Part shown: positions 18,598 through 19,902 of the stretch, piece after piece
Numbering within the stretch: the first letter of the stretch is position 1
How the letters are laid out: each line of letters starts with the position of its first letter
Origin: Isoetes taiwanensis
Taxonomy: Eukaryota > Streptophyta > Lycopodiopsida > Isoetales > Isoetaceae
DNA length: 64,000 bases
Direction: 5' to 3'
Assembly: GCA_021234155.1 (NCBI GenBank)
Contig: JAJEKV010000049.1
Coordinates: 7,970,036 to 8,034,035, forward strand
Notes under the pieces: generated by a model
What the model saw: only the letters and a program-made list of their open reading frames with translations
Told to the model about the DNA's origin: nothing
The model's database searches: none
Translations under genes and position numbers: made by a program

Positions 18598-19902
18598 ATG
18601 CCGCGCTTCAAGCTAACCGTGGATTTGAAGAAGTTGAGCGTGTTCGGTTATTTGCCGCCCTAGTAGTCGAAAGCATCTTCTTTGAGGAAGACCCTATGAT
18701 AGATACCATTCTTAACCTTTTTGTCAAGCACTTTTGTCGGGGCCGACGAGTCCCCTACCCTATCTTCCACTTCAACGGCGCTTCCTCCTCAAGTTGAATG
18801 AAGCCGGTCGGGATTACACTCGTGGAGCAGCCGGACCGTGCATGGGCTGTGGTTAAGTTTTATCCCTCGCCAGGACCAGATGACGACCCTGCAGAGCTTA
18901 GTCAGAATGAAGCCCAGAGGATCATGCATCTTGCGAGAGTGGAAGACTTGCACCAGATAGCCAGTGCTCCACCAGACATAAGAATGGAACGTTTTTATTA
19001 CTTGGGGAAAGGTCGTATACTTACGTACCGGGAATACTTTAATCTTCCTACCTTCTCTTGGAATGAAGACCTTAACAGCTTCATCTTTGAGAATGTCCCG
19101 CCAAGGTTTAGTCAAGGCCACACGGAATCCAAGGCGAGGGGAGGACATGCGAGCACCACGGCCAGGTGTACCACACCGAGATTGCTTTCGGCAAGATACA
19201 AATGCTGCCCGGACAAGGAGGCCAGGGATGAAGAGAGAGAGCGGCTCCAAGAGGAAGGGGAGGACCTTCATAGCCAGCAGAGCGAGAATCAAGAGGGGGG
19301 CCAGCAAGATCACCAGCAGGACCTAGGTGTTGCCCAGAATGTTAATCCCGTGAAAACCACAGCCGGCGTTAACCGATCGGCAGACCCGCAGCAGCCGAGC
19401 GGGCAAGGTAATCGGAGACTAAAGAGAACAAAGTCCCGGCCTATTAAGAGTGGGGTGCACTATAAGACCCGACTGCAGCAGGATGCAACAATCGCCAAGA
19501 AGACATCGGCTCAGAGACGGGAGCACATCGTTGAGCGGACAAGGCATCCTAACACAAAGCGGGCAAGTCCATTCCGCCGCAAAGGCGACCCTTAAGCCGC
19601 GGAAACCCCACAGGTTTCGACCGGGCACGGTAGCACTTCGGGAGATACGTAAGTATCAGAAGACTACCGAGCCATTGATCCACCGGCTTCCCTTCCAGCG
19701 CCTGGTACGGAAGATTGCTCAGGACTTCAAGACCGACCTAAGGTTTCAAGCTTTTGCGATCCTTGCCTTACAGGAAGCTGCCGAGGCGTATCTTATTGAA
19801 CTTTTGAGCGACGCTAACCTTTGCGCCATACACGCGAAGAGGGTCACTATTATGCCCAAGGACCTTCAGCTGGCACGAAGGATCCGAGGGGATTTTAGGT
19901 GA
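18598..19902 (+). CDS. Element B ORF1: charged protein with C-terminal histone H3 fold
   Basis: A retrotransposon-borne gene of about 435 codons, read in pieces. ATG 18598 gives MPRFKLTVDLKKLSVFGYLPP; an open stretch in another frame covers 18663-19595, with a stop just before 18798. It contains FHFNGASSS, VEQPDRAWAVVKFYP, an aromatic/acidic domain (RMERFYYLGKGRI) and a long Arg/Glu/Gln-rich linker. The H3 core is in a third frame, open from 19450 to the stop at 19900: HRFRPGTVALREIRKYQK (alpha-N), PFQRLVRKIAQDFKTDLR (alpha-1, loop 1), ALQEAAEAYL (alpha-2), NLCAIHAKRVTIMPKD and QLARRIRG. By hand about four-fifths of core positions match canonical plant H3. It has Phe at position 41, Leu at position 90, and no enlarged loop 1. 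The usual ARTKQTARKS tail is absent. It probably formed a fusion protein. The function (packaging cDNA, altering target chromatin) is inference. Confidence 0.85.
19594..19902 (+). other. Histone H3-fold domain within element B ORF1
   Basis: All secondary-structure segments of H3 are represented and uninterrupted from KPRKPHRF to the stop. Changes from canonical H3 cluster in alpha-2 (RFQAFAILAL, and YLIELLSDAN where canonical plant H3 has YLVGLFEDTN) and at the extreme C-terminus (RGDFR). The Cys corresponding to H3 Cys110 is kept. Confidence 0.93.

What the first reader, a model, noticed from the sequence alone, without database searches (positions are those of the whole stretch)
18598..19902. 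A retrotransposon gene carrying a histone H3 fold (element B ORF1)
Seen: between the PBS and gag of an LTR- and TSD-bounded gypsy element, in sense orientation, there is an open H3 core with PHRFRPGTVALREIRKYQK, LVRKIAQDFKTDLRFQ and NLCAIHAKRVTIMPKD. Known: H3 forms nucleosomes with H4, and chromovirus pol ends in a chromodomain that reads H3 marks. Inferred: the element captured a host H3 and fused it to an element-specific N-terminal region. The normal tail is replaced, so it could compete with, mark or package chromatin or cDNA. The core is much better preserved than the surrounding gag-RT, hinting at constraint or a younger origin. I know of no described LTR retrotransposon with this content.
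Basis: partly seen in the sequence, partly recalled or inferred. Interest (0 to 1): 0.93.

Follow-up and report, generated by a model that had tools for sequence, protein, structure and literature searches.

The report
Retrotransposon lineage carrying a histone H3
A family of jumping genes in what is almost certainly a quillwort genome carries its own version of histone H3, a protein that packages chromosomes, and selection has kept that histone nearly unchanged, which suggests that these elements use it on their host's chromatin.

Summary
The finding is real and larger than reported. Window 19603-19899 (+) encodes an H3 core (Pfam Histone E=1.2e-43) inside a 13.2-kb Ty3/gypsy element with LTRs, TSD and PBS. 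The window's assembly (1.658 Gb, matching Isoetes taiwanensis) holds many relatives. Of 75 element-type loci read from an H3 search, all carry an H3 core, 2 with a stop inside. All 20 loci read after choosing by the ORF1 N-domain alone have H3 directly downstream, 8 of them uninterrupted. ORF1 is about 390-460 aa where complete: N-domain, linker, altered tail, H3 core; four subfamilies share it. Core omega is about 0.04-0.06 and synonymous divergence from host H3 is saturated: an old, constrained element gene. Host H3 genes form one separate clade (0.996). Tails lack ARKS, the K9/K27 motif (0 of 72), but keep a K14-like [G/A]K motif (71 of 72). Most likely ORF1 enters nucleosomes as an H3 variant and alters chromatin in the element's favour; this function is inferred. 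A second, broken H3 lies in element A. My paper searches found no histone-encoding LTR retrotransposon.

The parts
16254..16258 (+). Target-site duplication ACCAC, 5' copy
16259..17877 (+). Element B 5' LTR
17880..17891 (+). Primer-binding site TGGTATCAGAGC
18598..19902 (+). ORF1 of element B, broken in this copy (frame changes near 18645 and 19556, one in-frame stop near 18795)
18598..19150 (+). ORF1 N-terminal domain (approximate limits), homologous across subfamilies, no Pfam match
19480..19602 (+). H3-tail-like segment (approximate limits, frame change inside); the same stretch in near relatives reads ...HPNTGGKS...KPRKPHR; no ARKS motif
19603..19902 (+). Histone H3 core and stop codon
20132..21526 (+). 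ORF2 of element B, broken; homologous to the 489-aa ORF2 of L092, which has no Pfam match and no convincing PDB match
22696..23683 (+). gag region, homologous to L092 gag (Ty3_capsid, Retrotrans_gag, zinc knuckle)
24148..27208 (+). RT - RNase H - integrase - chromodomain, broken frames
27814..29456 (+). Element B 3' LTR
29457..29461 (+). Target-site duplication ACCAC, 3' copy
35640..36203 (-). Second H3-fold ORF, in the outer element A, frames broken: ALKEIRHFQ / LLIPRAPFQRLVREV... / HAKRVTLMRQDMYLARHIKGERP
29930..31960 (-). Element A protease-RT-RNase H open frame; RT region 73-81% aa identical to L092 depending on the stretch compared

Best explanation
Shown: a lineage of Ty3/gypsy retrotransposons in an Isoetes-type genome carries an extra gene (ORF1) upstream of gag. 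Where complete it encodes a protein of about 390-460 aa that ends in an H3 core fused to an element-specific N-terminal domain, a charged linker and a rewritten tail. The core is under strong purifying selection, not far from that on host H3. The two elements of the window also have a chromodomain integrase. Inferred: the core derives from a host H3, most like H3.3, by one old capture. Inferred, most likely mechanism: the protein pairs with host H4 and enters nucleosomes as an H3 variant, since the conserved part is the whole histone fold. Because its tail lacks the ARKS motifs of K9 and K27, such nucleosomes would not carry the usual silencing marks there, and the N-terminal domain could recruit element proteins. 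I therefore propose that ORF1 makes chromatin, at the element's own copies or at integration targets, more permissive for it. Likelihood: element-encoded conserved H3 gene about 0.95; nucleosome entry about 0.65; anti-silencing or chromatin marking as the selected purpose about 0.45.
For: 75 of 75 element loci read from the H3 search and 20 of 20 loci chosen by N-domain carry H3 at the same place. Omega of the core: 0.038 by NG86 (1509 of 2701 element pairs computable), 0.044 by codon ML (71 unique sequences), 0.060 in copies not chosen by H3 score (45 pairs of 10 copies); host pairs 0.015. Within ORF1 the core is the most constrained part: 0.037 against 0.097 N-domain, 0.137 tail and 0.235 linker in 12 complete B-type ORFs. 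Host H3 genes form one clade (0.996), and residues 86, 105 and 107 differ from all 15 host loci in all 74 element cores. R69, R72, R83, F84, C110, H113, K115, R116, T118, D123, L126 and R129, which I recall as DNA-contact or H3-H3/chaperone positions, are the host residue in 74 of 74. Four subfamilies have alignable ORF1s; in three elements read over 9.9 kb ORF2, gag and RT lie downstream. ARKS in 0 of 72 tails. Single viral histones close to host histones are thought to work by entering host nucleosomes (PMC9145170, passages).
Against: No expression, protein or chromatin data were available. Constraint on a histone fold also fits a chaperone decoy, cDNA packaging or tethering. Structure models from single sequences were too poor to use (pLDDT 57 and 47). 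The sample was ranked by H3 score, which lowers dN. The copy in the window is broken, and 12 of the 20 N-domain-chosen loci have a broken, truncated or stop-bearing core. Some contact residues vary: R42 is K in 18 of 74 and K64 is R in 50 of 74. The tail keeps a K14-like lysine, and K5 is invariant in 5 of 5 aligned ORF1s, so it is not free of modifiable lysines.
Confidence: 0.5

Rival explanations
1. Tether: ORF1's H3 core sits in host nucleosomes while its N-terminal domain binds Gag or integrase, so that particles or pre-integration complexes are held to chromatin at chosen sites.
For: The N-domain is itself conserved (ratio 0.097 B-type, 0.160 C-type); elements A and B also carry a chromodomain integrase, of the type II kind by my reading (no aromatic at the first cage site); the partner of type II chromodomains is unknown (PMC6317226, passage).
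Against: No interaction data; overlaps with the leading explanation.
Confidence: 0.25
2. Packaging: ORF1, alone or with host H4, coats element cDNA or RNA in particles or extrachromosomal DNA, as some giant-virus histones coat genomes.
For: Histone fold conserved; histone-encoding viruses known (PMC9145170, passages).
Against: Single H3-like viral histones are thought to enter host chromatin (PMC9145170, passage).
Confidence: 0.1
3. Decoy: ORF1 titrates H3 chaperones or H3-modifying silencing enzymes without entering nucleosomes.
For: In the chaperone-discriminating stretch 86-90 (recalled), residue 86 is changed in 74 of 74 and 87 is F in 54 and H in 20 (H also in 1 of 15 host loci); 89 is changed in 65 of 74.
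Against: Recalled DNA-contact and H3-H3 positions such as R69, R72, R83, R116, T118, C110, H113 and D123 are kept in 74 of 74, more than a decoy would need.
Confidence: 0.1
4. Passive cargo: a captured H3 gene carried by recent copies and not used.
For: Genes captured by LTR retrotransposons are common in plants (672 in rice, 1,343 in sorghum; PMC3726574, passages).
Against: Ratio 0.060 with mean dS 0.68 even in copies not chosen by H3; same ORF1 layout in four subfamilies.
Confidence: 0.02

Closest known systems
Plant Ty3/gypsy chromoviruses (chromodomain elements)
   Same: LTRs, PBS, Ty3-type gag, PR-RT-RNase H-IN order, C-terminal chromodomain
   Different: Two extra ORFs between PBS and gag, the first ending in an H3 core
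Ogre/Tat-type elements with an extra ORF upstream of gag (recalled)
   Same: Extra ORF in the PBS-gag interval
   Different: That ORF is not, as far as I recall, a histone; the elements here have a chromodomain
Single viral histones (bracovirus H4; single H2B and H3 of DNA viruses; PMC9145170, passages)
   Same: Viral genome carrying one host-like histone; bracovirus H4 also has an extended tail
   Different: DNA viruses, not a reverse-transcribing element; the word retrotransposon does not occur in that review's main text
Histone H3.3 and CENH3
   Same: H3 core 81-89% identical to a host-like H3 core that is itself 98-99% identical to the 15 host loci; best PDB match H3.3
   Different: Long N-terminal domain, no ARKS motif, element-specific residues 86, 105 and 107
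LTR-captured plant genes (PMC3726574; review PMC13317346; passages)
   Same: Host gene inside an LTR element
   Different: Here the gene is conserved across subfamilies as a standard part; 'histone' has 0 occurrences in the main text of either paper

Membership tests
Ty3/gypsy LTR retrotransposon | Paired LTRs with TSD and PBS | tested here: met
   Element B. In L091-L093 only the PBS motif was looked for (2 of 3)
Ty3/gypsy LTR retrotransposon | gag and PR-RT-RH-IN order | tested here: met
   Pfam on L092 and element A; L091, L093 and element B by similarity
Chromovirus | Chromodomain at the C-end of integrase | tested here: met
   Elements A and B, Pfam Chromo 2.7e-10 and 2.3e-9; not testable in L091-L093, whose 3' ends were not fetched
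Histone H3 | Complete H3 core alignable without gaps | tested here: met
Histone H3 | Canonical tail with K9 and K27 in ARKS | tested here: not met
   0 of 72 tails have ARKS; [G/A]K[S/T/R] kept in 71 of 72; a few of these tails are out of frame upstream
Histone H3 | Assembles into nucleosomes | not testable with these tools
   no wet-lab data
CENH3 (element A only) | CENH3-type residues; closer to host CENH3 than to H3 | tested here: inconclusive
   LLIP and RVTLM resemble plant CENH3 by recall only; the listed PDB hits for the longest piece were H3; the genome search for relatives did not complete (and repeats from 81 to 126)
Processed pseudogene | Single copy, no constraint | tested here: not met
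   an own poly(A) or TSD around the H3 part was not looked for

The most novel reading that the evidence does not exclude
A retrotransposon lineage makes its own chromatin: its H3 variant, stripped of the K9 and K27 silencing motifs, is deposited on element copies and keeps them open. H3-family histones entered this slot more than once, with element A holding a CENH3-like one that could steer it to centromeres.
Probability: 0.25. Interest if true: 0.96.

Novelty: new variant of a known kind. Interest (0 to 1): 0.9.

Why it matters
Histones carried by selfish genomes are known to me only from DNA viruses. A reverse-transcribing element that has kept an H3 gene under near-histone constraint through several subfamilies implies a direct, selectable use of nucleosomes by a retrotransposon. 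It offers a natural test of which H3 tail residues are needed to silence transposons, and perhaps of what type II chromodomains bind.

Tried and rejected
Processed pseudogene or one-copy accident: rejected. Younger origin as the reason for good preservation: rejected, dS to host saturated. Selection artefact from ranking by H3 score: checked with copies chosen by N-domain; the signal remains (0.060), although only 10 of 20 could be aligned without gaps and 2 of those 10 hold a stop.

Structure prediction of the window's H3 and ORF1 N-domain as single sequences: too poor to use or search with. Viral-contig scan with the N-domain: none confirmed. Pfam for the ORF1 N-domain and Pfam and PDB for ORF2: nothing convincing. 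Other core histones in the element: none found in the window or L091-L093. CENH3 origin of element A's histone: not resolved. That MARTKGTKS at the ORF1 start of L088 and L089 is the old H3 N-terminus: suggestive only. M1 and K5 are shared by 5 of 5 aligned ORF1s; cannot count this, because its patterns demanded the K.

Full report
Observation. Window 19603-19899 (+) encodes an H3 core ending in a stop at 19900-19902. Pfam gives Histone at E=1.2e-43 and the PDB gives histone H3.3 at E=3.6e-51. It lies in element B: LTRs 16259-17877 and 27814-29456 (93.0% identical, 69 mismatches and 29 gap openings over 1651 columns), TSD ACCAC, and PBS TGGTATCAGAGC at 17880. RNase H, integrase zinc-binding and chromodomain matches are present, and RT by similarity. 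In this copy ORF1 is broken: it changes frame near 18645 and 19556 and has an in-frame stop near 18795. The assembly used nanopore reads polished with Illumina (PMC8566536, passages), so some of the indels may be assembly errors.

A second H3 in the window. Element B sits inside element A (minus strand, LTR pieces 12724-14332 and 37965-39574, 94.9%). A also carries an H3 fold between its 5' LTR and gag, at 35640-36203, in broken frames (Pfam Histone 7.8e-9 and 4.3e-4 for two pieces, the latter under Pfam's cut-off). Its residues ALKEIRHFQ, LLIP and RVTLM resemble plant CENH3, but that rests on recall, and the listed PDB hits of the longest piece are H3. A's RT region is 73-81% identical to that of L092, an H3-carrying element, while L092's ORF2 finds no match in A.

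Host. The window lies in an assembly of 1,658,258,908 bases in 1110 contigs. Isoetes taiwanensis is published as 1658.30 Mb in 204 scaffolds plus 909 contigs (PMC8566536, passages). I take this as the host, by inference. The word 'histone' does not occur in that paper's main text.

Genome-wide. A search with Pfam Histone scored 150 of 8705 candidates, all over the cut-off. Fifteen loci (L001-L015) encode host H3. Of the other 135 I read 75: ranks 16-30, and 60 of the 120 rows below them, picked by hand down the list. All 75 have an H3 core 81-89% identical to a host-like core; 2 have a stop inside (L021, L085). Many stand at the end of long open frames, up to 494 aa. A search with the ORF1 N-domain alone scored 125 of 4581 candidates. 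From these I took, by reading the list, the first 20 absent from the list whose match reached the end of the query or nearly so (one ended at 308 and one at 316 of 319). All 20 have a significant H3 match directly downstream. In 8 of the 20 the core is uninterrupted and without a stop; the other 12 have frame breaks, an in-frame deletion, truncation or stops. Among the loci read I saw none without H3, but I did not search with RT, so elements lacking ORF1 would have been missed.

ORF1 anatomy. Complete ORF1s are 400-459 aa in 12 B-type and 451 aa in 4 C-type loci, and 394 and 400 aa in L089 and L090. Five ORF1s from four subfamilies align along their length, 44-79% identical to the first. None of the five has a Pfam match over its cut-off in the N-domain. 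Three elements read over 9.9 kb each (L091-L093) have ORF1, ORF2, gag and RT in that order, by Pfam in L092 and by similarity in the others; the PBS motif was seen in 2 of 3. ORF2 is about 489 aa in L092 and matches nothing in Pfam or, convincingly, the PDB. H4, H2A and H2B queries find nothing in the window or these three loci at E<=1.

Selection. For the core, NG86 gives a dN/dS ratio of means of 0.038 over the 1509 of 2701 element pairs that could be computed, against 0.015 for 94 of 105 host pairs; by dS class it runs 0.03-0.13. Codon ML on 71 unique cores gives 0.044. Copies chosen by N-domain give 0.060 (45 pairs of 10 copies, 2 with a stop). Dropped before these counts: L021 and L085 (stops); 10 of 20 loci not alignable without gaps. 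Host-element dS was computable for only 4 of 1110 pairs. Within ORF1 the core is the most constrained part: B-type 0.037 (64 of 66 pairs) against 0.097 N-domain (44), 0.137 tail (47) and 0.235 linker (55); C-type (6 of 6 pairs) 0.021 against 0.160, 0.124 and 0.130.

Origin. In a FastTree of cores the 14 unique host H3s form one clade with support 0.996 after midpoint rooting, so one branch parts hosts from elements. All 74 element cores (75 loci plus the window's, less the 2 with stops) have A107 where 15 of 15 hosts have T; positions 86 (A/T) and 105 (S/G) also differ from every host locus; position 87 is F in 54 and H in 20, and H in 1 host. This fits one old capture of an H3.3-like gene (best PDB match H3.3). 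Elements B and L048 differ by dS 0.014, 1 synonymous and 2 nonsynonymous changes, which suggests that members of this subfamily moved fairly recently.

Tail. Of 72 loci with at least 45 residues before the core, 0 have ARKS and 71 have G or A, then K, then S, T or R; a few of these tails are out of frame upstream. The host tail reads MARTKQTARKSTGGKAPRK. M1 and K5 are invariant in the 5 aligned ORF1s, and L088 and L089 start MARTKGTKS. This may be the old H3 N-terminus, with the N-domain inserted into the tail, or it may be coincidence.

Mechanism. Shown: a conserved element gene. Inferred: nucleosome entry, since the whole fold is the constrained part. Positions whose commonest residue differs from the host are 60, 64, 86, 87, 89, 101, 102, 104, 105, 107 and 124, mostly around a stretch that I recall as discriminating between H3 chaperones, while R69, R72, R83, C110, H113, K115, R116, T118, D123, L126 and R129 are kept in 74 of 74 (their roles are recalled). 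R42 is K in 18 of 74 and K64 is R in 50. Inferred: lack of the K9 and K27 motifs means that such nucleosomes would escape the usual marks. Tethering, packaging and decoy models are not excluded. The chromodomains of A and B lack an aromatic at the first cage position by my reading, as described for type II chromodomains, whose partner is unknown (PMC6317226, passage).

Literature. Seven paper searches on the topic and one for the host genome, of which I saw listings, gave no histone-encoding LTR retrotransposon. I read passages of PMC8566536, PMC9145170, PMC6317226, PMC13317346, PMC11687628 and PMC3726574. Papers outside the held open-licence library, and preprints, were not searched.

Noticed in passing
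window 20132-21526; L092:5123-6589: ORF2, a second extra gene between the H3 ORF and gag, about 489 aa in L092, homologous in B, L091 and L093 (roughly 38-55% identical over the longer aligned pieces), with no Pfam or convincing PDB match.
   Followed up: partly
window 35640-36203 (-): Element A's H3-like ORF has a different N-terminal region and CENH3-like residues (recalled) although its RT is 73-81% identical to that of an H3 element; possible swap or second capture.
   Followed up: partly
window 35217-37339: Four copies of a ~79-nt repeat with inverted ends (GGTCTCACACGTTGCGCC...GGCGCGACGTGTGAGAC) in element A, perhaps small inverted-repeat elements.
   Followed up: no
window 7461-11317: Ty1/copia-like element by eye, with a gag-like ORF on the minus strand next to integrase- and RT-like ORFs on the plus strand, as if rearranged.
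   Followed up: no
window 43117-48674 (-): A third gypsy element with integrase and RT similar to A; no H3 match elsewhere in the window.
   Followed up: no
L088:324, L089:328: ORF1 of this subfamily starts MARTKGTKS, like the H3 N-terminus MARTKQTARKS.
   Followed up: partly
window 53022-53426 and 60949-61353: ORFs that look by eye like LINE reverse transcriptase pieces, one on each strand.
   Followed up: no
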